DNA from: Balneola sp.
GTDB lineage: Bacteria; Bacteroidota; Rhodothermia; Balneolales; Balneolaceae
NCBI GenBank assembly: GCA_017640785.1
Contig: JAEPPZ010000005.1
Location: 171,448-235,447 of the forward strand
Reading direction: 5' to 3'
DNA: 64,000 bases
The position numbers and the translations under genes were made by a program. Shown here piece after piece: positions 35,362 to 55,430 of this stretch (positions are counted from its first letter, which is position 1; the number at the start of each line of letters is the position of its first letter). A model generated the notes under the pieces. That model saw only the letters and a program-made list of their open reading frames with translations. It had not been told where the DNA came from and made no database searches.

Positions 35362-35816
35362 TGTCATATCGAGATGAGTGAAGGCGTAGCCTGATGACCG
35401 AGAAATCTAAAGAACTACTAATTTACATCAACTATCTTTAGATGTCTCACATACGTTCGACATGACAAACTCGGCTCTGTCATTTCGAGATGAATGAAGG
35501 CGTAGCCTGATGACCGAGAAATCTAAAGAACTACTAATTTACATCGACTATCTTTAGATGTCTCACATACGTTCGACATGTCAGAGTCGATTTTGTCATT
35601 TCGAGATGAACGAAGGCGTAGCCTGAATGACCGAGAAATCTAAAGAACTACTAATTTACATCAACTATCTTTAGATGTATCACATCCGTTCGACATGACA
35701 GAGCCGAGTTTGTCATTTCGAGATAAGTGAAGGCGTAGCCTGAACGACCGAGAAATCTAAAGAACTTCTAAATTGCATCGAATATCTTTAGATTTCTCCC
35801 TCTGGTCGAAATGACA
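35362..35816. repeat. Array of four ~106-bp REPIN-like elements (family 2), left of the GIY-YIG gene
   Basis: Copies lie at 35362-35467, 35478-35583, 35594-35700 and 35711-35816. Each has outer arms TGTCATTTCGA / TCGACATGACA and inner arms GAGAAATCTAAAGA / TCTTTAGATGTCTC, so it folds into one long hairpin. Successive copies are separated by exactly 10 bp. The spacer is AACTCGGCTC between copies 1 and 2 and its exact reverse complement GAGCCGAGTT between copies 3 and 4. The stretch 35220-35361 before the array shows only repeat-like fragments. Confidence 0.9.
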
Positions 35817-35851
35817 AAAACGTTGTTTACTAAGCCAAACAATTATCAACT

Positions 35852-36193
35852 GTGTTATACTATGTCTACATAACAACCAATTCTAGCAAAACTACTTTGT
35901 ATGTTGGTATAACAAATGATATTCCATCCAGAATATTGGAACATGGATTGAACGCCGGAAACCCCGAAACTTTTGCTGGAAAATATCATTGCTTTAATCT
36001 TCTTTATTACGAAGAATTCAAATATGTAAATGATGCTATCGCAAGAGAAAAAGAAATCAAAAAATGGCGTCGAAACAAGAAAGAGCAATTAATTAATTCG
36101 GTAAATCCTGAATGGAGGTTTCTTAATAAGGAACTGGGACTATACCCTTTTGGTGATTATGCTGATGAAAGGAATATCAAAAACAGAAGATAG
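35852..36193 (+). CDS. GIY-YIG nuclease-domain protein inside the repeat array
   Basis: It has a GTG start at 35852 and 113 residues. The nuclease domain has YYVYITTNSS (GIY strand), TLYVGITNDIPSRILEH (YIG strand, Arg, His), LLYYEEF and AIAREKEIKKWRRNKKEQLI, followed by a longer tail than the protein at 18664. The gene starts 35 bp after repeat copy 4 and ends 10 bp before copy 5. This is the same relation to palindromes as the first GIY-YIG gene, but with a different repeat family. Confidence 0.88.
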   Translation: MLYYVYITTNSSKTTLYVGITNDIPSRILEHGLNAGNPETFAGKYHCFNLLYYEEFKYVNDAIAREKEIKKWRRNKKEQLINSVNPEWRFLNKELGLYPFGDYADERNIKNRR

Positions 36194-36203
36194 AAAACCA
36201 CCT

Positions 36204-36520
36204 TGTCAGTTCGATTGTATCTGAAAAGTCTAGGATTTTTAGATATATAAAAGCAATCTTTAGATGTCTCACATCCGTTCGACATGACAGAGCCGAGTTT
36301 GTCATTTCGAGATGAATGAAGGCGTAGCCTGATGACCGAGAAATCTAAAGAACTTCTAAATTGCATCGAATATCTTTAGATGTCTCACATTCGTTCGACA
36401 TGACAGAGATAGTTTTGTCATTTCGAGATGAGTGAGACAAAGTCGAACGACCGAGAAATCTAAAGAGCTACTAATTTACATCGACGATGTCTAGATTTCT
36501 CACATCCGTTCGAAATGACA
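36204..36520. repeat. Family 2 repeat array, right of the GIY-YIG gene (three copies)
   Basis: Copy 5 (36204-36289) has a degenerate left half. Copies 6 (36300-36405) and 7 (36416-36520) are complete. Spacers are again 10 bp: GAGCCGAGTT and GAGATAGTTT. The region on to 36686 contains a GACCCTGAAGGGTC palindrome at 36541-36554 and words such as CCAATAACTAATCC shared with the paa-operon hairpins; no gene is seen. Confidence 0.88.
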
Positions 36521-40900: not shown

Positions 40901-40920
40901 GGCTTAATTTTGAATGTTTA

Positions 40921-40960
40921 ATTATGAATTTTGAATTAGCGGCCATTCAAAATTCATAAT
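40921..40960. repeat. Operon hairpin between hppD and hmgA
   Basis: ATTATGAATTTTGAAT (40921-40936) and ATTCAAAATTCATAAT (40945-40960) are exact 16-bp inverted repeats. The junction is otherwise only AT-rich filler. It resembles the gene-less hairpins of the paa cluster. Confidence 0.75.
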
Positions 40961-40978
40961 CCATAATTAATAATTCGT

Positions 40979-44692: not shown

Positions 44693-44696
44693 GAAC

Positions 44697-44773
44697 AGTA
44701 CTTAGTATTGAGATGTTAGATTTTAGCGTCGCTTAAGTTAAGCTCAATACTAAGTACTAATATCTCAATACTA
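44697..44773. repeat. Operon hairpin between paaC and paaD
   Basis: AGTACTTAGTATTGAG (44697-44712) is the exact reverse complement of CTCAATACTAAGTACT (44743-44758). A second copy of the right word (TATCTCAATACTA, 44761-44773) could pair with the left arm instead. It starts 4 bp after the paaC stop and ends 4 bp before the paaD start. Confidence 0.8.
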
Positions 44774-44777
44774 AAAA

Positions 44778-45287
44778 ATGTCAACTCAAACCCTACATAC
44801 CGAAGAGCAAATTTGGGATTATATCCGCGAGGTAACGGATCCGGAGATTCCTGTTCTCAATATTATCGAAATGGGTATCGCGCGTAGTGTTGATATAGAT
44901 AGTTCAGGAAAAGTGACCGTCAAGATCACTCCGACTTATTCCGGTTGTCCTGCCATGAACGCCATCGAAAAAATGGTAAAGGAAAAATTGGCAGAAAAAA
45001 ACATAGAAGATTTTGAAGTAAAACTAGATTTTTCTGAAGCCTGGACTACTGATTGGATGACGGATGAAGCCAAAGTTAAACTCAAAGACTATGGTATCGC
45101 CCCTCCTGAAAAATCCGTGAACGATGATGATTTTTTGAAGAGTTTATCAGGAACTAAGATTGTCCCCTGCCCTTTTTGTGATTCTTTTGAAACTGAACTT
45201 CAAAGCCAGTTTGGTTCTACGGCTTGTAAATCTCAGTATTTTTGTAATTCTTGTCATCAACCCTTTGAACATTTTAAATGCATATGA
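44778..45287 (+). CDS. paaD: Phenylacetate pathway Fe-S assembly factor PaaD
   Basis: The 169-residue protein has an N-terminal DUF59/MIP18 domain (VTDPEIPVLNIIEMGIAR, TPTYSGCPAMNAIEKMV, DWMTDEAKVKLKDYGIAPP) and a C-terminal zinc ribbon (CPFC, 19 residues, CNSCHQPFEHFKC). PaaD is needed for maturation of the epoxidase reductase PaaE, which is not in this window. It overlaps the next gene by 4 bp. Confidence 0.94.
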   Translation: MSTQTLHTEEQIWDYIREVTDPEIPVLNIIEMGIARSVDIDSSGKVTVKITPTYSGCPAMNAIEKMVKEKLAEKNIEDFEVKLDFSEAWTTDWMTDEAKVKLKDYGIAPPEKSVNDDDFLKSLSGTKIVPCPFCDSFETELQSQFGSTACKSQYFCNSCHQPFEHFKCI

Positions 45288-47604: not shown

Positions 47605-48754
47605 AGAAACAGCAGTAGGAATCATAGGCGCAGGTACAATGGGCGCCGGAATCGCACAAATAGCATCTACAAATGGACATGAAGTTTATCTGTATGATGC
47701 TTACGCCGAACAGCTTCCAAAAGCTAAATCAGGGTTAGAAAAGATCCTGAATCGTCAGGTTGAAAAAGGGAGAATGTCACAAGAAGAAGTGGATGGAATT
47801 CTTTCCCGAATCCATTTTGTGGAAGACATCACAGAATTTGGAAAGTGTGGCTTTGTGATTGAAGCTATCGTAGAAAATATTGATGTCAAAAAAGATGCTT
47901 TTCAACGATTGGAAGGAATTGTTTCTAAAGATTGTGTGCTTGCATCCAATACCTCTTCCCTTTCCATTGCTTCGATCTCATCAGCATTAAAAAAGCCGGA
48001 ACGGTTCTTAGGGGTCCATTTTTTCAATCCTGCTCCGCTGATGAAATTGGTGGAGATCATCCCAAGTGTAGCCACTAATTCTGATCTAGCGCAATCAACC
48101 AAAGAGTTCATTTCCGGATGGGGAAAGATCACGGTCTTAGCAAAAGACACTCCCGGATTTATCGTTAACCGTGTGGCTCGACCTTTTTATTCCGAAGCAC
48201 TCAGGATTTTGGAAGAAGGCGTTGCCGATGTTCCAACCATCGATTGGGCAATGAAAGAGATCGGCGGTTTCAGAATGGGACCTTTCGAACTAATGGATCT
48301 TATCGGTCATGATGTAAATTATGAAGTGACATCAAGCGTATTCAAAGAATTTTACTACGACCCAAGATTCAAACCTTCATTTACTCAAAAACGATTGGTT
48401 GAAGCCGGTTGGTTAGGCAGAAAATCGGGTAAAGGATTTTATAATTACGGAGAGGATGCAAAAAATCCTGATCCAAACACTGACAAAGAATTAGGCGAAG
48501 AAATTCTTCACAGAATACTCGTAATGCTGATCAACGAAGCTTTCGATGCCGTATTTATGAATATAGGTTCTGCGGAGGATGTAGATCTTGCAATGCAAAA
48601 CGGAGTGAATTACCCAAAAGGCTTACTTGCATGGGCGGAAGAGATAGGATTAGAAAAAGTCTTAGGCCGAATGAATGCTCTTTATGAGGAATATCAGGAA
48701 GACCGCTACAGACCTAATCCACTTTTGAAAAGAATGGTAAGAGAAAAGCAGTAA
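47591..48754 (+). CDS. paaH: 3-hydroxyadipyl-CoA dehydrogenase PaaH
   Basis: I chose ATG 47591; a TTG at 47576 is less likely. The 387-residue enzyme oxidises 3-hydroxyadipyl-CoA. It has GIIGAGTMGAGIAQIAS (NAD loop), ASNTSSLSI, GVHFFNPAPLMKLVEI (catalytic His), DTPGFIVNRVARPFYSEA, MGPFELMDLIGHDVN, GWLGRKSGKGFYNY and a second C-terminal domain. It is shorter than the 475-residue E. coli protein but complete in domains. Confidence 0.93.
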   Translation: MTLDKETAVGIIGAGTMGAGIAQIASTNGHEVYLYDAYAEQLPKAKSGLEKILNRQVEKGRMSQEEVDGILSRIHFVEDITEFGKCGFVIEAIVENIDVKKDAFQRLEGIVSKDCVLASNTSSLSIASISSALKKPERFLGVHFFNPAPLMKLVEIIPSVATNSDLAQSTKEFISGWGKITVLAKDTPGFIVNRVARPFYSEALRILEEGVADVPTIDWAMKEIGGFRMGPFELMDLIGHDVNYEVTSSVFKEFYYDPRFKPSFTQKRLVEAGWLGRKSGKGFYNYGEDAKNPDPNTDKELGEEILHRILVMLINEAFDAVFMNIGSAEDVDLAMQNGVNYPKGLLAWAEEIGLEKVLGRMNALYEEYQEDRYRPNPLLKRMVREKQ

Positions 48755-48822
48755 TCAGAATTCAGGAGTTCAGGAGTTCAGAATATGAGTAGAACTCTGC
48801 TGAATTCTGAACTCCTGATTAC
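48751..48822. repeat. Operon hairpin between paaH and paaI
   Basis: The left arm 48751-48784 contains GTAATCAG plus two overlapping copies of AGGAGTTCAG. The right arm CTGAATTCTGAACTCCTG (48800-48817) continues into ATTAC. The paaH stop codon (48752-48754) lies in the left arm. The word TTCAGGAGTTCAGAAT recurs in the arms of the four-helix-bundle element at 54977-55430. Confidence 0.75.
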
Positions 48823-48839
48823 TGACAGCTAACAACAAT

Positions 48840-49247
48840 ATGAGCAAAGACTACAAAAACATAATTCAATCCATGATGGAAAAAGATGCCTTTTCCCAGT
48901 GGATGGGTATTGAGATATTGGAATCAGAATCGGGATATGTGAAAATATCCATGGAGATCCGTCAAGAAATGTGCAATGGATTTGGGATTTGTCATGGCGG
49001 AATTACATTCTCTTTAGCTGACAGTGCTTTAGCATTTGCATCCAACTCCAGAGGCTCAATATCTGTAGCCTTGGAAAATAATATCAACTATACTAAAAAA
49101 GTAGAAGTAGGTGATACACTTATTGCTGAAACAGAAGAAATTCAAAACGGAAGAACCATCGGCGTGTATAAGATCAAGGTTGTGAATCAGAATGATGATC
49201 TAGTTGCAGATTTTAGGGGAACGGTTTATAGGACTGGCAGACATTAG
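48840..49247 (+). CDS. paaI: Phenylacetate-pathway thioesterase PaaI
   Basis: The 135-residue hotdog-fold thioesterase has FSQWMGIEILESESGYVKI, MCNGFGICHGGITFSLADSA (Asn-His-Gly catalytic region with the downstream Asp) and AETEEIQNGRTIGVYKI. PaaI removes CoA from dead-end hydroxyphenylacetyl-CoA and rescues the CoA pool. Confidence 0.93.
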   Translation: MSKDYKNIIQSMMEKDAFSQWMGIEILESESGYVKISMEIRQEMCNGFGICHGGITFSLADSALAFASNSRGSISVALENNINYTKKVEVGDTLIAETEEIQNGRTIGVYKIKVVNQNDDLVADFRGTVYRTGRH

Positions 49248-49689
49248 ATGTTAGTATTCAGTAGTTAGATTTTTAGTATCGAAAGTAGGAGTATTTTTAT
49301 GCATCAATTTAAAGAATTAAAGGTTTGGCAGAAATCTGTAGAATTAGCTACTGAAGTTTATAATTCTACTAAGAATTTCCTATCCGAAGAGAAGTTTGGG
49401 ATAACTTCTCAAATTAGAAGAAGCGTTGTTTCTATAGGCTCAAATATCGCTGAAGGTGCTGGAAGAAAATCAAAAAAAGAATTCAAACTATTTCTAAACT
49501 ATGCATATGGGTCATGTTCTGAACTCGAAACTCAACTTATCATTTCAAAAAATTTAGGATTTTTAAATCCAGACTCATTACCTGTTTTATCTGAATCAAT
49601 TAATGAAATTCAAAAAATGATCTACTCTCTGTCTAATAGTTTGAACTAGGTGATGAAAACTAATTTCTAAATACTCAATACTACTATCT
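49246..49689. mobile_element. IVS-like cassette 1: inverted repeats around a four-helix-bundle gene
   Basis: The left arm 49246-49276 (AGATGTTAGTATTCAGTAG...) and right arm 49660-49689 (...ACTCAATACTACTATCT) are about 80% reverse-complementary. The left arm overlaps the paaI stop; the right arm ends one base before the thiolase start. The enclosed gene is on the plus strand. The right arm shares the word CTCAATACTA with the hairpin at 44697. Confidence 0.7.
49299..49649 (+). CDS. Four-helix-bundle protein, 23S rRNA IVS type (1)
   Basis: The 116-residue helical protein of the IVS/four-helix-bundle family has FKELKVWQKSVELATEVYN, FGITSQIRRSVVSIGSNIAEG (family signature), KEFKLFLNYAYGSCSELETQL and a last helix SINEIQKMIYSLSNSL. 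Relatives are encoded in 23S rRNA intervening sequences and as the Avd protein of diversity-generating retroelements, where a basic bundle binds nucleic acid. No rRNA or retroelement is present here. Confidence 0.92.
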   Translation: MHQFKELKVWQKSVELATEVYNSTKNFLSEEKFGITSQIRRSVVSIGSNIAEGAGRKSKKEFKLFLNYAYGSCSELETQLIISKNLGFLNPDSLPVLSESINEIQKMIYSLSNSLN

Positions 49690-49690
49690 C

Positions 49691-50908
49691 ATGTCTAAAA
49701 GCGAAGCGTACATAATCGACGGAATCAGAACTCCAATTGGAAAATTGAAAGGCACACTCTCTTCTATCAGAGCGGATGATCTTGCGGCAATTCCTATTAA
49801 AGAACTTTTGAAAAGAAATCCGGAATTAGATCCTGCTTCAGTAGAAGATGTGATACTGGGATGTGCAAATCAAGCCGGAGAAGATAACAGAAATGTCGCT
49901 CGAATGGCTGCTTTACTTGCCGGACTTCCGGTATCAGTTCCGGGCGAAACCGTGAATCGTTTATGTGCATCAGGAATGAGCGCCACAATTCGTGCTTTTC
50001 ATGCAATAAAAGCCGGTGAAGGCGATGTTTTTATCACCGGAGGTGTAGAACATATGACTCGCGGACCTATCGTTCTAGGCAAAGGAAATTCTCCTTATTC
50101 AGGAACGACTGAAATGCATGATTCTACTTTCGGATGGAGATTTGTAAATCCAAAAATGCATGAAATGCATGGAACTGATGGAATGGGAATGACTGCTGAA
50201 AATGTAGTTGAAATGCACAAGATATCTCGGGAAGATCAGGATAAATTTGCTACTTGGAGTCAACAAAAAGCCGGTGTAGCTCGTGATTCAGGTCGTTTGG
50301 CTAAAGAAATTGTAAAAGTCGAAATCCCACAAAGAAAAGGCGACCCGATCGTTTTTGAACACGATGAATTTATGCGTCCAGATACAACTGCTGAAATTCT
50401 TGGAAAGCTCAGACCTGCATTTAGAAAAGATGGTTCAGTAACTGCAGGAAATGCTTCGGGATTGAATGACGGAGCCGGAGCTTTATTGATCGCTTCAGAT
50501 TCTGCTGTTAAGCAATATGGGTTCAAACCAAAAGCCAGAATTGTTGCTTCGGCAGTTTCCGGAATTGAGCCTAGAATTATGGGACTTGGTCCTGTGGAAG
50601 CAACTCAGAAAGCTTTGCAACGCGCCGGACTTTCCTTAGACGATATGGATATTATTGAACTCAACGAAGCGTTCGCCGGACAATCTCTTGGAGTTACCAG
50701 AAAACTTGGACTGGAAGACAATGATTCGAGACTAAATCCGAATGGTGGAGCAATTGCAATCGGACATCCATTAGGAATGACTGGACAAAGATTACTTCAA
50801 ACTGCTACCATCGAGCTACATGAAAATTCTGATAACAAATACGCACTTTGTACTTTGTGTGTAGGAGTTGGACAGGGATTTGCTGTTGTTTTGGAGAAGG
50901 TTAGTTAA
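49691..50908 (+). CDS. paaJ: 3-oxoadipyl-CoA thiolase
   Basis: The 405-residue thiolase begins YIIDGIRTPIGKLKGTLS. Motifs: VNRLCASGMSA (nucleophile Cys), GGVEHMTRGP, NEAFAGQSLG, GGAIAIGHPLGMTGQR (His) and LCTLCVGVGQG (second Cys). The position fits PaaJ, which releases succinyl-CoA and acetyl-CoA. The final step could be shared with other ring pathways (PcaF). Confidence 0.92.
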   Translation: MSKSEAYIIDGIRTPIGKLKGTLSSIRADDLAAIPIKELLKRNPELDPASVEDVILGCANQAGEDNRNVARMAALLAGLPVSVPGETVNRLCASGMSATIRAFHAIKAGEGDVFITGGVEHMTRGPIVLGKGNSPYSGTTEMHDSTFGWRFVNPKMHEMHGTDGMGMTAENVVEMHKISREDQDKFATWSQQKAGVARDSGRLAKEIVKVEIPQRKGDPIVFEHDEFMRPDTTAEILGKLRPAFRKDGSVTAGNASGLNDGAGALLIASDSAVKQYGFKPKARIVASAVSGIEPRIMGLGPVEATQKALQRAGLSLDDMDIIELNEAFAGQSLGVTRKLGLEDNDSRLNPNGGAIAIGHPLGMTGQRLLQTATIELHENSDNKYALCTLCVGVGQGFAVVLEKVS

Positions 50909-50912
50909 TTAA

Positions 50913-51334
50913 GAGATTAAGTTATTGAGTAATTAAGTTTCTAATATGTACAAACTATCTGAACTAGAATCTTGGAAATCAGCACGGCAATTACGAATTG
51001 CTATTTCTGATTTAGTAAAATCATTTCCAGCTGACGAAAAATTTAGATTGAAGGATCAGATTGTCAGATCTTCAAGGTCAATTCCTGCTAATATAGCGGA
51101 AGGGTTTGGTCGTTTTCATTATCAGGAAAACATTCAGTTTTGTAGAATTGCTAGAGGTTCGTTATATGAAACTCTTGAACACTTGATGTGTGCTAAAGAT
51201 GAAGGCTATATTACCGCTGAGCAATTTCAAGATTTGAATGATCAAATTCTTGAATGCCTAAAAATATTAAATGGATATGTTCAGTATCTTAAAAAAGCAA
51301 AGAAATCCACTTAATTACTCAATAACTTAATCTC
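50913..51334. mobile_element. IVS-like cassette 2: perfect 26-bp inverted repeats around a four-helix-bundle gene
   Basis: Bases 50913-50938 (start GAGATTAAGTTATTG) are the exact reverse complement of 51309-51334 (end AATAACTTAATCTC), 26 of 26. The left arm starts 4 bp after the thiolase stop. The gene's own stop TAA lies in the right arm, which ends 16 bp before paaY. Confidence 0.85.
50946..51314 (+). CDS. Four-helix-bundle protein, 23S rRNA IVS type (2)
   Basis: The 122-residue protein has LSELESWKSARQLRIAISDL, LKDQIVRSSRSIPANIAEGFG (family signature), QFCRIARGSLYETLEHL and a basic C-terminus KKAKKST. It is clearly homologous to, but not a recent duplicate of, the proteins at 49299, 52519 and 55066. 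Its final codons and stop are formed by the right inverted repeat. Confidence 0.92.
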   Translation: MYKLSELESWKSARQLRIAISDLVKSFPADEKFRLKDQIVRSSRSIPANIAEGFGRFHYQENIQFCRIARGSLYETLEHLMCAKDEGYITAEQFQDLNDQILECLKILNGYVQYLKKAKKST

Positions 51335-51350
51335 CTAAACACTAAGCCGA

Positions 51351-51950
51351 ATGGCGATCTACGAATACAAAGAATATAAACCAGTAATTCACGAAAGTGC
51401 TTACATACATCCGCTTGCGGCTGTGACTGGAAATGTGATTATCGGCAAGGATGTGTATATCGGTCCCGGGGCTGCTATTCGAGGTGATTGGGGAAAGATC
51501 GTAATTAAAGATGGCTGCAATGTTCAAGAAAATTGTACCATTCATATGTTTCCGGGAGTTACTGTTACTCTGGAAGAAGGCGCACATGTTGGGCACGGAG
51601 CTATTATTCATGGTTCGCACCTTGGTAAGAACTGTTTGATCGGAATGAATGCTGTAATCATGGATAATGTGAAAATTGGTTCCGGCTGTATTGTAGGTGC
51701 TTTGACATTTATCAAAGAAGGAATGGAAATTCCGGATCGTAAAGTTGTGGTTGGAAATCCTGCTAAAATAGTGAAAGATGTTTCTGATGACATGCTGAAA
51801 TGGAAAACAGAGGGAACCGGTTGGTATCAAAGATTACCTAAAGAATTGCATGAAACCTTGAAAGAATGTGAACCGTTGAGAGAAATACCTGAAGATAGAA
51901 AAGATCAGAACTCTGACTATGAGACTTGGGGCAAATCGAAGGATGGTTAA
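51351..51950 (+). CDS. paaY: Gamma-carbonic-anhydrase-like hexapeptide protein PaaY
   Basis: The 199-residue left-handed beta-helix protein has VTGNVIIGKDVYIGPGAAIRGDWG, VQENCTIHMFPG, HVGHGAIIHG and CLIGMNAVIMDNVKIG, with the three zinc histidines of the gamma class. PaaY is a thioesterase-like accessory of phenylacetate pathways. Its stop codon lies in the left arm of the next hairpin. Confidence 0.92.
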   Translation: MAIYEYKEYKPVIHESAYIHPLAAVTGNVIIGKDVYIGPGAAIRGDWGKIVIKDGCNVQENCTIHMFPGVTVTLEEGAHVGHGAIIHGSHLGKNCLIGMNAVIMDNVKIGSGCIVGALTFIKEGMEIPDRKVVVGNPAKIVKDVSDDMLKWKTEGTGWYQRLPKELHETLKECEPLREIPEDRKDQNSDYETWGKSKDG

Positions 51951-52031
51951 TAGCGATTAGTTATTTGGAGAGTCTTTGCTTTACGTTATTTTCTACTCTG
52001 TCCATAAAACCAATAACTAATCACCATTAAC
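51945..52031. repeat. Operon hairpin between paaY and the next gene
   Basis: GGTTAATAGCGATTAG continuing to 51968 pairs imperfectly with CCAATAACTAATCACCATT continuing to 52031. The paaY stop (51948-51950) is in the left arm; the next start follows 7 bp after the right arm. The words match the hairpin at 43853 (CTAATAACCAATAAC). Confidence 0.7.
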
Positions 52032-52038
52032 AGAACAC

Positions 52039-52482
52039 ATGGGATTTTTTAAGAACGATAAAAAAGGAAAGCCACCGCATACCTGGTATCCTGAAATATT
52101 ACACTGGCGAGAAGGTGATAAGATCTTTTGCTGGAATATTGCAAAAGCATTGGGTTATTTGAATGCCAAATCGAAAGATTTGTACAAGTATATGTCTGCT
52201 ACTGAACAAATGAGTGGTGGCTTTGGCAAAGCTAATTTTTTCTATAAATCAGTTGACGAAACCGGCAATATTTATCTGGAATATGAAGGTGAAACAGTAC
52301 AATTTGAGTTTTGGAGATTTATTAAATCATCTGAAAATGAAAGCTTGAAGTCTCGAAATTTGCAAGATGACGTAAAGAATTCAAAAAAATACATGGAATT
52401 GATGTCGACCTTTCAACATGCATTCGATGAACTACAGGAAGCGGATGATCATCCGAAGAGACTAGGTCAAAAAAACTCGTAA
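52039..52482 (+). CDS. Unknown soluble protein in the paa cluster
   Basis: It is not recognised. The 147 residues include HTWYPEILHWREGDKIFCWN, SKDLYKYMSATEQMSGG, LEYEGETVQFEFWRF and a charged helical tail. There is no signal peptide and no membrane segment. The beginning (a compact beta-rich WREGDKIFCWN block) could be a small ligand-binding domain. It sits between a hairpin and cassette 3. Confidence 0.6.
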   Translation: MGFFKNDKKGKPPHTWYPEILHWREGDKIFCWNIAKALGYLNAKSKDLYKYMSATEQMSGGFGKANFFYKSVDETGNIYLEYEGETVQFEFWRFIKSSENESLKSRNLQDDVKNSKKYMELMSTFQHAFDELQEADDHPKRLGQKNS

Positions 52483-52920
52483 CTGGTTACTCGTTTCTTT
52501 TAACTTAGAAATATAATCATGAGCTACCGTAATTCAGAGATCTGGCAACTTGCAAAGGAGCAATCAAATAAAATTCATTTTATGAGTTTAAAACTTCCAA
52601 GATTTGAGCTTTATGAAACCGGAAGTCAAATAAGAAGATCTTCAAAATCGGTGCGCTCGAATATTGTTGAAGGATATGGTAGAAGAAGTTATAAAAGGGA
52701 ATATATTCGATTCTTAATTTTTGCTCTCGCGTCTAACGATGAGACTAGAGATCATCTTGACTCGCTATATGAAACTCAATCATTAAAGAGCAAAGAACTT
52801 TATCTTGAACTGATAGAATTAAATGATAAACTTGGGAAGAAATTGAACCTCTTCATCCAATCGGTAGAAAGAACACAATAATAATTATGGAAACTGATAA
52901 CCAGAATCAAGAAACGAGTA
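52483..52920. mobile_element. IVS-like cassette 3: weak arm pair, right arm inside paaZ
   Basis: CTGGTTACTCGTTTCTT (52483-52499) has a reverse complement matching 52909-52925 in 15 of 17 positions, including 12 in a row. The right arm lies in codons 8-13 of paaZ, not in the gap. This is much weaker than the other three pairs and could be chance. Confidence 0.4.
52519..52881 (+). CDS. Four-helix-bundle protein, 23S rRNA IVS type (3)
   Basis: The 120-residue protein has [40 protein letters not shown] (family signature) and a very basic second helix ([22 protein letters not shown]). It is the most divergent of the four. It ends 5 bp before paaZ. Confidence 0.9.
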
Positions 52921-54962
52921 GCGAGCTAAAAGTACAAAGTTATATTCAAGGAAAGTGGCTATCAAAAGGATCAGAAACTGATCTTATCAGTGCTATTAAC
53001 GAAAAACCAGTTGCTCAATTAGTCGAAGCTGATATCGATTATCACTCTGCACTGGAATACGGACGAACTGTAGGTGGACCTGCCCTTCGCAAACTCACCA
53101 TCCACGAGCGTGCCTTTAAAATTAAGTTTCTTGCTGCTTATTTGATGGAGAGAAAGGAAAAACACTACAAACTTTCTTCTCACACAGGAGCTACCCGTAA
53201 AGATTCCTGGATAGATATTGAAGGTGGGTATGGATCTATGTTTGTACTTTCCAGCAAAGCCCGTCGAGAACTTTCCGACCTCCCTTTCCACGTTGAAGGT
53301 GGAACTGAACGTCTTTCCAGAGGCGGAACTTTTGTTGGACAACATATTTGTGTTCCAAAGCATGGAATCGCCGTTCATATCAATGCATTCAATTTTCCGG
53401 TTTGGGGAATGGTTGAAAAATTGGCGCCGGCAATTATGGCGGGACAGCCATGTATCATCAAGCCTTCACCGGTTGGATCATACTTGGCTTACGAAGTCTT
53501 TAAAGATATTATTGAATCTGAAATTCTTCCTGAAGGAAGTGTACAGTTCATAGCTGCAGATAAACCCGGAGATCTTCTGGATCACCTTAACAGTCAGGAT
53601 TCTGTTTCTTTTACCGGATCGGCTACTACAGGCAAGAAATTAAAATCGCATCCCAATATTGTAGCGAATTCTATTCAGTTTAATATGGAAGCCGATTCAT
53701 TGAATGCGTCAATTCTTGGTCCTGATGTTACTCCTGATATGGAAGAATTCAATCTTTTCATTAAGGAAATCGGCATGGAAATGACCGTTAAAACAGGACA
53801 AAAATGTACCGCCATTCGTCGAACTATTGTTCCAAGAGAACGACTTGAAGATGTATCCGAAGCACTAAAGATCTTTCTTTCAAAAACAACCATAGGCGAT
53901 CCTACAGATAAAGATACCAGAATGGGACCTTTGGCTTCCAGTCTTCAGTCTCAAAGATTTGATGAACAACTTGCAGTGCTTGAAGACGTGACAGATTCTA
54001 TTTTTTCTAACGGAACTCATGAAGGCGCTTTCACTAGCCCGAAAGTTTTGGTTTGTCATCAACCAATGAAAGTTGATAAAGTCCATGAAGTTGAAGCTTT
54101 CGGACCAATGACAACCATCATGCCTTATGATTCTACTGAAGAAGCTATTCAGCTTGCCAATAAATCTGATGGTTCTTTAGTGGCTTCTCTTTTTACTGCT
54201 GATGATGATATTGCAGCAAAAATAACTTTAGGATGCGCTCCTTATCACGGTCGTTTTATGGTGATCAACAAAGATTCTGCAGGCGAGTCAACGGGACATG
54301 GTTCCCCGATGCCGCATATGGTCCATGGTGGTCCGGGAAGAGCGGGAGGCGGAGAAGAACTTGGTGGAGCCAGAGCAGTACTTCACAATATGCAGAGAAT
54401 CGCTCTACAAGGCTCCCCTACTACATTAATGAACATAGTTAAGCAACACATTAAAGGAGCAGAAACAAAGGAAGCGCCTAAGCATCCATTCCAAATGTAT
54501 TTTGAGGAATTAGAAGTGGGACAGTCTTTGCTTTCTGATGTTCGAAAGGTTAAAGATCAGGACGTTGAGGATTTTGCTAATCTTTCCGGTGATCATTTCT
54601 ATGCGCATACAGATCCTGACGCAGCTTCCCGATCTTTGTTTGGTAAAATTGTTGCTCATGGATATTTTGTGCTTTCCGCAGCAGCCGGACAGTTTGTTCA
54701 TCCTGATGAAGGGCCTGTATTGCTTAATTATGGATTAGAAAATCTGGCTTTTCTGGCTCCTGTTGCTCCCGGAGATACCATCCAAACTAAACTCATTGTA
54801 AAGCGAAAAACAGTTCGCCAACAACGGGAAATGGACCTATTCCCTTTTGGAGTAGTGTATTGGGATGTAGAAGTAAAAAATCAGGAAGACGTTTTAGTTG
54901 CTGAGTATACCATACTAACTTTAGTGAAAAGAAAGAATAAATTAGATATCGACCTGGTTTAG
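52887..54962 (+). CDS. paaZ: Bifunctional PaaZ: oxepin-CoA hydrolase / semialdehyde dehydrogenase
   Basis: The 691-residue fusion carries out ring opening. Residues about 15-525 are an aldehyde dehydrogenase with [21 protein letters not shown] (general-base Glu) and [10 protein letters not shown] with catalytic Cys307. Residues about 535-690 are a MaoC-like R-hydratase domain with [32 protein letters not shown] and [12 protein letters not shown]. The first 14 residues ([14 protein letters not shown]) extend beyond the usual start and overlap the possible arm of cassette 3. Confidence 0.95.
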
Positions 54963-54976
54963 TCTGTGGTCAGAAC

Positions 54977-55430
54977 TCAGAATTTCAGGAGTTCAGAATT
55001 GATCTTTTTTGTAAGGAATTGCTTTGAATTGGTCTTATTAGATAACTAATAAATAATTTTTATCTATGAAACCAGCACAAACATTTAAAGACCTTTTAGT
55101 TTGGCAGAAAGCGCATAAATTTGTACTTGAAAGCTATGCTTATTCAAAGAGCTTCCCAAAAGAAGAAATTTATGGTCTTACTTCGCAGTATAGAAGAGCC
55201 TCTGTATCAATAGCCGCAAATATCGCTGAAGGATTCAAGAAAAGAGGACAAAAAGATAAAGCAAGATTCATGAATATCGCACAAGGATCATTGGAAGAAT
55301 GTAGATATTACCTTATACTCGCACAAGATTTAGGATATGGATCATCTCAAAACTTGAACGATCTCCTTGAGGAAGTGAGTAAAATGCTTTCAAGTTATGG
55401 AAGATCAATTCTGAACTCCTGAAATTCTGA
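54977..55430. mobile_element. IVS-like cassette 4: perfect 28-bp inverted repeats around a four-helix-bundle gene
   Basis: Bases 54977-55004 (start TCAGAATTTCAGGAG) are the exact reverse complement of 55403-55430 (end GAACTCCTGAAATTCTGA), 28 of 28. The left arm starts 14 bp after the paaZ stop. The last codons and stop of the enclosed gene are inside the right arm. Arm words recur in the hairpin at 48751. Confidence 0.85.
55066..55422 (+). CDS. Four-helix-bundle protein, 23S rRNA IVS type (4)
   Basis: The 118-residue protein has FKDLLVWQKAHKFVLESYAY, YGLTSQYRRASVSIAANIAEG (family signature), FMNIAQGSLEECRYYLILAQDLGYG and a final helix LLEEVSKMLSSYGRSILNS. The last five residues and stop are coded by the right arm of the flanking inverted repeat. 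Confidence 0.92.
   Translation: MKPAQTFKDLLVWQKAHKFVLESYAYSKSFPKEEIYGLTSQYRRASVSIAANIAEGFKKRGQKDKARFMNIAQGSLEECRYYLILAQDLGYGSSQNLNDLLEEVSKMLSSYGRSILNS

What the first reader, a model, noticed from the sequence alone, without database searches (positions are those of the whole stretch)
50913..51334. Cassette 2: 26/26 perfect inverted repeat with the gene's stop codon in the arm
An AT-rich 26-base arm is repeated exactly, 396 bases apart, in reverse complement. The stop TAA of the enclosed gene belongs to the right arm. Exact arms imply recent insertion or strong selection for pairing.
Basis: seen in the sequence. Interest (0 to 1): 0.75.

Follow-up and report, generated by a model that had tools for sequence, protein, structure and literature searches.

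The report
Mobile four-helix-bundle cassette with repeat arms
The 26-base inverted repeat is real and marks the ends of a small mobile DNA cassette, the same kind found in bacterial ribosomal RNA genes, whose ends are built from short 7-8-base repeats that turn up around the same small protein gene across many bacterial phyla.

Summary
In detail: arms 50909-50938 and 51309-51338 pair at 29 of 30 bases (26 in one perfect run); resampled sequence gives at most 16. The enclosed gene (50946-51314) is a PF05635 'IVP/S23' four-helix bundle, the protein of rRNA intervening sequences. In two sister species the thiolase-paaY junction is empty; a third (G006) carries a 92% identical cassette between flanking genes only 74-79% identical, so the cassette moves as a unit. 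The arms are inverted arrays of degenerate 7-8-nt repeats (here GATTAAGT TATTGAGT AATTAAGT). Inverted arms flank 68-77% of 236 PF05635 genes from many phyla against 1-2% in mismatched controls, including a 23S rRNA insertion in Azospirillum and a Xanthomonas copy with the published GGGAATC heptamers. Arm type follows protein subfamily across phyla even where third codon positions are saturated. Best reading: a mobile IVP element sitting in an operon; its transcript should fold into a long stem cut by RNase III (shown in vitro for Coxiella, inferred here), and the protein probably recognises the repeats (inferred). Exactness of the arms is not conserved in sisters; approximate pairing is, except where the ORF is dead. 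How the cassette integrates is unknown.

The parts
50909..50938 (+). left arm; 26-nt perfect part 50913-50938; octamer array GATTAAGT TATTGAGT AATTAAGT
50946..51314 (+). IVP/S23 four-helix-bundle gene, 122 aa, PF05635 / TIGR02436
   Evidence: fold match to 2gsc and 2rld
51309..51338 (+). right arm, reverse complement of the left arm; holds the gene's TAA
50906..51350 (+). whole inserted cassette between the thiolase (pcaF-like) coding end and the paaY start; 2-3-nt junction in the empty sisters; exact boundary not defined
49239..49696 (+). neighbouring IVP cassette: arms 49239-49269 / 49666-49696, gene 49299-49649 (heptamers AGACATT AGATGTT AGTATTC)
52475..52933 (+). neighbouring IVP cassette with weak arms: 52475-52499 / 52909-52933 (80%), gene 52519-52881
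54977..55430 (+). neighbouring IVP cassette: arms 54977-55006 / 55401-55430 (30/30), gene 55066-55422 (repeat CAGAATT/CAGGAGT)
48749..48824 (.). ORF-less hairpin with the CAGAATT/CAGGAGT repeat of the 54977 cassette
44695..44781 (.). ORF-less hairpin with the AGTATTG/AGATGTT repeat type of the 49239 cassette and its relatives
40906..40976 (.). ORF-less hairpin with the GAATTTT repeat of an IVP cassette elsewhere in this genome (L011)
51946..52031 (.). ORF-less hairpin between paaY and the next gene (GTTAATA/ATTAGTTA); link to a cassette type not significant

Best explanation
This is a small mobile element of the IVS/IVP kind: one PF05635 gene between two inverted arrays of degenerate 7-8-nt repeats, inserted in a protein-coding operon instead of rRNA. 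Shown: the architecture, occupied and empty sites, movement as a unit between species, co-inheritance of arm type with protein subfamily, and a predicted stem in the transcript. Inferred: (1) as part of the paa operon transcript the arms form a stem of about 30 bp that RNase III cuts, freeing the IVP segment and splitting the mRNA between cistrons, as shown in vitro for the Coxiella 23S rRNA IVS; (2) the pentameric four-helix protein recognises the repeat array, which would explain why the repeat type is kept with the protein; (3) the protein helps the element spread. The integration chemistry is unknown; the cassette encodes no transposase, nuclease or reverse transcriptase.
For: PF05635 hit 1.7e-35. 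Empty junctions in G005 and G003; a different IVP with other arms in G004; an IVP on the opposite strand in G014; ORF-less hairpins in G028, G013 and G018 at the same junction. G006 cassette 92% identical (third positions 82%) with flanks at 74-79% (third positions 47-53%). IR score >=14 in 77% of 135 non-Balneolaceae and 68% of 101 family IVP genes vs 1.3-1.7% of mismatched pairs and 4-12% in direct orientation. Arm periodicity 7 (46/80), 8 (16/80) or 14 (13/80), flat in controls. Protein-arm association across distant taxa r=0.195, permutation mean 0.018, sd 0.026, p=5e-4; antisense control r=-0.05; arm type kept with third positions at about 0.4. Azospirillum 23S rRNA insertion with heptamer arms. 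Xanthomonas GGGAATC arms. RNA fold z=-5.66 with the arms as closing stem. Coxiella IVS: 28-bp stem, GACAGAT heptamers, RNase III cleavage at the first repeat (PMC4990558).
Against: About a quarter to a third of IVP genes show no clear arms, including some own-genome copies (L010, L012). Base-level covariation is weak. No target-site duplication could be defined. No near-identical copies at unrelated sites were found in the family sample, so movement is documented at one orthologous junction, not as transposition to new sites. Recombination through short conserved flanks could have carried the cassette into G006. Protein-arm association can arise partly from linkage within transferred cassettes. 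In Coxiella the protein appeared not to be made in vivo (PMC4990558), which does not favour an active role there. No transcript data here.
Confidence: 0.75

Rival explanations
1. Host-beneficial regulatory stem: the arms are an attenuator or mRNA-stability element of the paa operon and the small protein is its regulator.
For: The stem lies between operon genes and holds the stop codon; four cassettes occur in one catabolic cluster.
Against: Same architecture next to unrelated genes in many phyla, including cas genes and rRNA; absent in sisters with the same operon; ORF dead in G006.
Confidence: 0.12
2. Passive palindrome: the arms are kept alike by DNA-level template switching or slippage of short tandem repeats, without function in RNA or mobility.
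For: Unit order and number change between sisters and between arms; heptamer slippage has been proposed in the literature (discussed in PMC4679880).
Against: Does not explain the frequent link with one protein family, the inverted rather than direct orientation, or repeat-type conservation across phyla.
Confidence: 0.1
3. A conventional MITE-like transposon moved in trans by a transposase encoded elsewhere, with the IVP gene as a passenger.
For: Terminal inverted repeats and ORF-less copies.
Against: Arm sequence differs between copies in one genome and follows the IVP subfamily instead of being uniform; no target-site duplication seen.
Confidence: 0.1
4. Retro-mobility: the excised RNA is reverse transcribed and reinserted with an RT acting in trans, as with the related DGR protein Avd.
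For: Avd-like fold (PMC10053308); RNA-level excision known in rRNA.
Against: No RVT_1 protein in G000 or in six other sampled genomes with IVP genes, one of them with 16 PF05635 matches.
Confidence: 0.08

Closest known systems
rRNA intervening sequences (IVS) with an S23/IVP ORF: Coxiella, Leptospira, Azospirillum
   Same: PF05635 gene inside a long inverted-repeat stem; Coxiella and Azospirillum arms contain heptamers (GACAGAT; GACGGAT/GACAGAG); cassette of about 430-445 bp
   Different: Sits between protein-coding genes of an operon; many copies per genome; none of 80 sampled relatives lies in rRNA
Dispersed heptamer repeats: cyanobacterial STRR, Xanthomonas GGGAATC (PMC4692102), Beggiatoaceae TAACTGA (PMC4679880)
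   Same: Intergenic 7-nt tandem units, in Xanthomonas often as inverted pairs, most often of four units
   Different: Reported as repeats alone, without a link to a protein gene in the papers read; here such arrays bracket an IVP gene
REP/REPIN with RAYT
   Same: Small gene flanked by inverted repeat elements, with dispersed gene-less copies
   Different: IVP is a four-helix bundle with no known catalytic domain; RAYT is a Y1-type transposase (own knowledge)
Avd of diversity-generating retroelements
   Same: Related four-helix fold (sub-threshold PF22296 hit on the neighbouring IVP; 4dwl in the fold search with weak E-value; homology argued in PMC10053308)
   Different: No reverse transcriptase or template repeat here

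Membership tests
IVP/S23 element (IVS kind) | PF05635 four-helix protein gene | tested here: met
IVP/S23 element (IVS kind) | terminal inverted repeats forming a long stem around the ORF | tested here: met
IVP/S23 element (IVS kind) | sporadic presence and absence at a defined site, horizontal transfer | tested here: met
IVP/S23 element (IVS kind) | location in 16S/23S rRNA | tested here: not met
   thiolase-paaY junction of the paa operon; no Rfam hit. It is therefore filed as an IVP element outside rRNA, not as an rRNA IVS
IVP/S23 element (IVS kind) | excision from the transcript by RNase III | not testable with these tools
   published for Coxiella in vitro (PMC4990558)
Diversity-generating retroelement | reverse transcriptase with template and variable repeats nearby | tested here: not met
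   no RVT_1 in G000
Insertion sequence / MITE | uniform terminal repeats among copies | tested here: not met
   arms differ between the copies of one genome
Insertion sequence / MITE | target-site duplication | tested here: inconclusive
   none visible at the empty versus occupied junction, but the boundary could not be fixed

The most novel reading that the evidence does not exclude
PF05635 proteins are the trans-acting, repeat-reading half of a very widespread class of mobile element that needs no transposase, nuclease or reverse transcriptase of its own. Each protein subfamily reads its own 7-8-nt unit, and dispersed bacterial heptamer repeats (STRR, GGGAATC and others) are gene-less copies moved by it.
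Probability: 0.35. Interest if true: 0.92.

Novelty: new variant of a known kind. Interest (0 to 1): 0.78.

Why it matters
IVS elements have been treated as curiosities of rRNA, and short heptamer repeats of bacterial genomes have no accepted origin. The data here join the two: similar repeat arrays bracket the same protein gene from Xanthomonas to cyanobacteria to Balneolaceae. That makes the origin of the repeats, the function of the 'S23' protein and the way IVS elements spread directly testable, and offers an explanation for why such genes turn up in cas loci (PMC3936711) and inside tight operons.

Tried and rejected
Own-genome search for other copies of the 26-mer: none except the two arms. 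Exact-copy transposon: rejected, arm sequences differ between copies. Base-pair covariation as main proof: weak outside this junction. Reverse transcriptase partner: absent in G000. rRNA location of the relatives: none of 80. Rfam on the paa region: no match. Recent transposition to new sites: no high-identity cassette pair with unrelated flanks in the family sample. The single-sequence AlphaFold model is of low confidence (pLDDT 66) but still finds 2gsc and 2rld first.

Full report
Observation. The two arms are as described: 26 of 26 perfect, 29 of 30 when extended. Resampled sequence of similar dinucleotide make-up gives perfect inverted repeats of at most 16 nt. The gene between them is PF05635, the protein of rRNA intervening sequences. 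The genome holds 14 such genes, four in this paa cluster.

The junction in relatives. In G003 and G005 the thiolase and paaY genes are separated by 2-3 nt; no cassette is there. G000, G001, G002, G007 and G006 carry the same cassette. G004, G024 and G031 carry other IVP genes with other arms, G014 one on the opposite strand. G028, G013 and G018 carry short ORF-less hairpins. In G006 the flanking genes are only 74% and 79% identical to those of G000 (third codon positions 47% and 53%), while the cassette is 92% identical (third positions 82%). The cassette therefore arrived in G006 on its own or with very short flanks. The only PF05635 match in G006 is this copy, and it has an internal stop.

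The arms are repeat arrays. Left arms of 80 IVP loci of the family have a best period of 7 (46), 8 (16) or 14 (13) nt, against a flat distribution in coding controls. The present arm reads GATTAAGT TATTGAGT AATTAAGT. Upstream and downstream arrays are inverted, not direct: score >=14 in 68% of 101 family loci and 77% of 135 loci from other taxa; mismatched pairs 1.3-1.7%, direct orientation 4-12%. The outside set includes cyanobacteria, Xanthomonadales, Nitrospirota, KSB1, Planctomycetota, Acidobacteriota, Chloroflexota and others. Period 7 is visible in the listed arms of these taxa but was counted formally only in the family set.

Link to rRNA IVS and to known heptamers. One plasmid copy (Azospirillum, L148) lies inside 23S rRNA and has the same architecture, GACGGAT GACAGAG GACGGAG. 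The Coxiella IVS has GACAGAT heptamers at its 5' end and a 28-bp terminal stem, cut by RNase III at the first repeat (PMC4990558). The Xanthomonas vasicola copy has GGGAATC arms, the heptamer reported as dispersed inverted pairs in Xanthomonas (PMC4692102); that genome has 52 overlapping matches to a GGGAATC array pattern and none to the reversed control.

Arm type follows protein. Across distant taxa arm similarity rises with protein similarity from 0.19 to 0.45 (r=0.195, p=5e-4 by permutation within composition classes); the antisense control does not. Examples: CAGAATT/CAGGAGT in Trichormus and Balneolaceae; GGCACAAA in Nitrospirae, KSB1 and Balneolaceae; AGCTNTT in cyanobacteria and Balneolaceae, with third codon positions at about 0.3-0.5. 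Linkage within transferred cassettes explains part of this, but conservation against saturated third positions suggests constraint on the repeat. Recognition by the protein is the simplest inference; it is not shown.

ORF-less copies. Three hairpins in the window (40906-40976, 44695-44781, 48749-48824) match arm types of IVP cassettes above shuffled controls and lie in short intergenic gaps. A fourth (51946-52031) does not reach significance.

Mechanism. The transcript of the cassette is predicted to fold with the arms as closing stem (z=-5.66). By analogy with the rRNA IVS, RNase III would cut it; in an operon this splits the mRNA between cistrons, which the host may tolerate. Among family loci whose neighbours run in one direction, 58 cassettes are in the same sense and 26 are antisense (neighbours taken as longest open frames, so approximate). 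How the element integrates is unknown. An RT-dependent route is made unlikely by the lack of RVT_1 proteins in G000 and in other IVP-carrying genomes.

Known and new. Known: the protein family and its pentameric structure, IVS in rRNA, heptamers in one IVS, heptamer repeats in several genomes, IVP genes in cas loci (PMC3936711) and in 16S/23S insertions of CPR bacteria (PMC11270868). I found no paper that joins these, within a library that lacks many subscription journals and preprints. New here, as far as that search goes: the general inverted-heptamer architecture outside rRNA, its dependence on protein subfamily, and the natural transfer into one operon junction.

Noticed in passing
window 35457-35721 and 35795-36437: A different inverted-repeat family (GTCATTTCGA type, 32 nt, 94%), unrelated to the IVP arms.
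   Followed up: no
L004, L006, L010, L011, L013, L016 upstream of the IVP gene: A shared TTTGTAAGGAATT ... GTCTTA/GTCTAA motif, resembling an ECF-sigma promoter, lies inside or outside the arms depending on the copy.
   Followed up: no
L138 and L146: IVP cassettes sit between cas6 and cas4, and between cas10 and cmr3, on cyanobacterial plasmids.
   Followed up: partly
L023 (G006): The ORF of the transferred cassette is broken by a TAA and its stem has shrunk to about 16 bp.
   Followed up: partly
L129/L130: Another IVP cassette is 99.7% identical between G002 and G004 while its flanks are 94% and 86% identical: a possible second transfer.
   Followed up: no
L027, L033, L034 (G028, G013, G018): Thiolase-paaY junctions with ORF-less hairpins of other repeat types (CGCAGAG, CACTAAG, CACGGAT/CACAGAT) that look like the same kind of repeat.
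   Followed up: no
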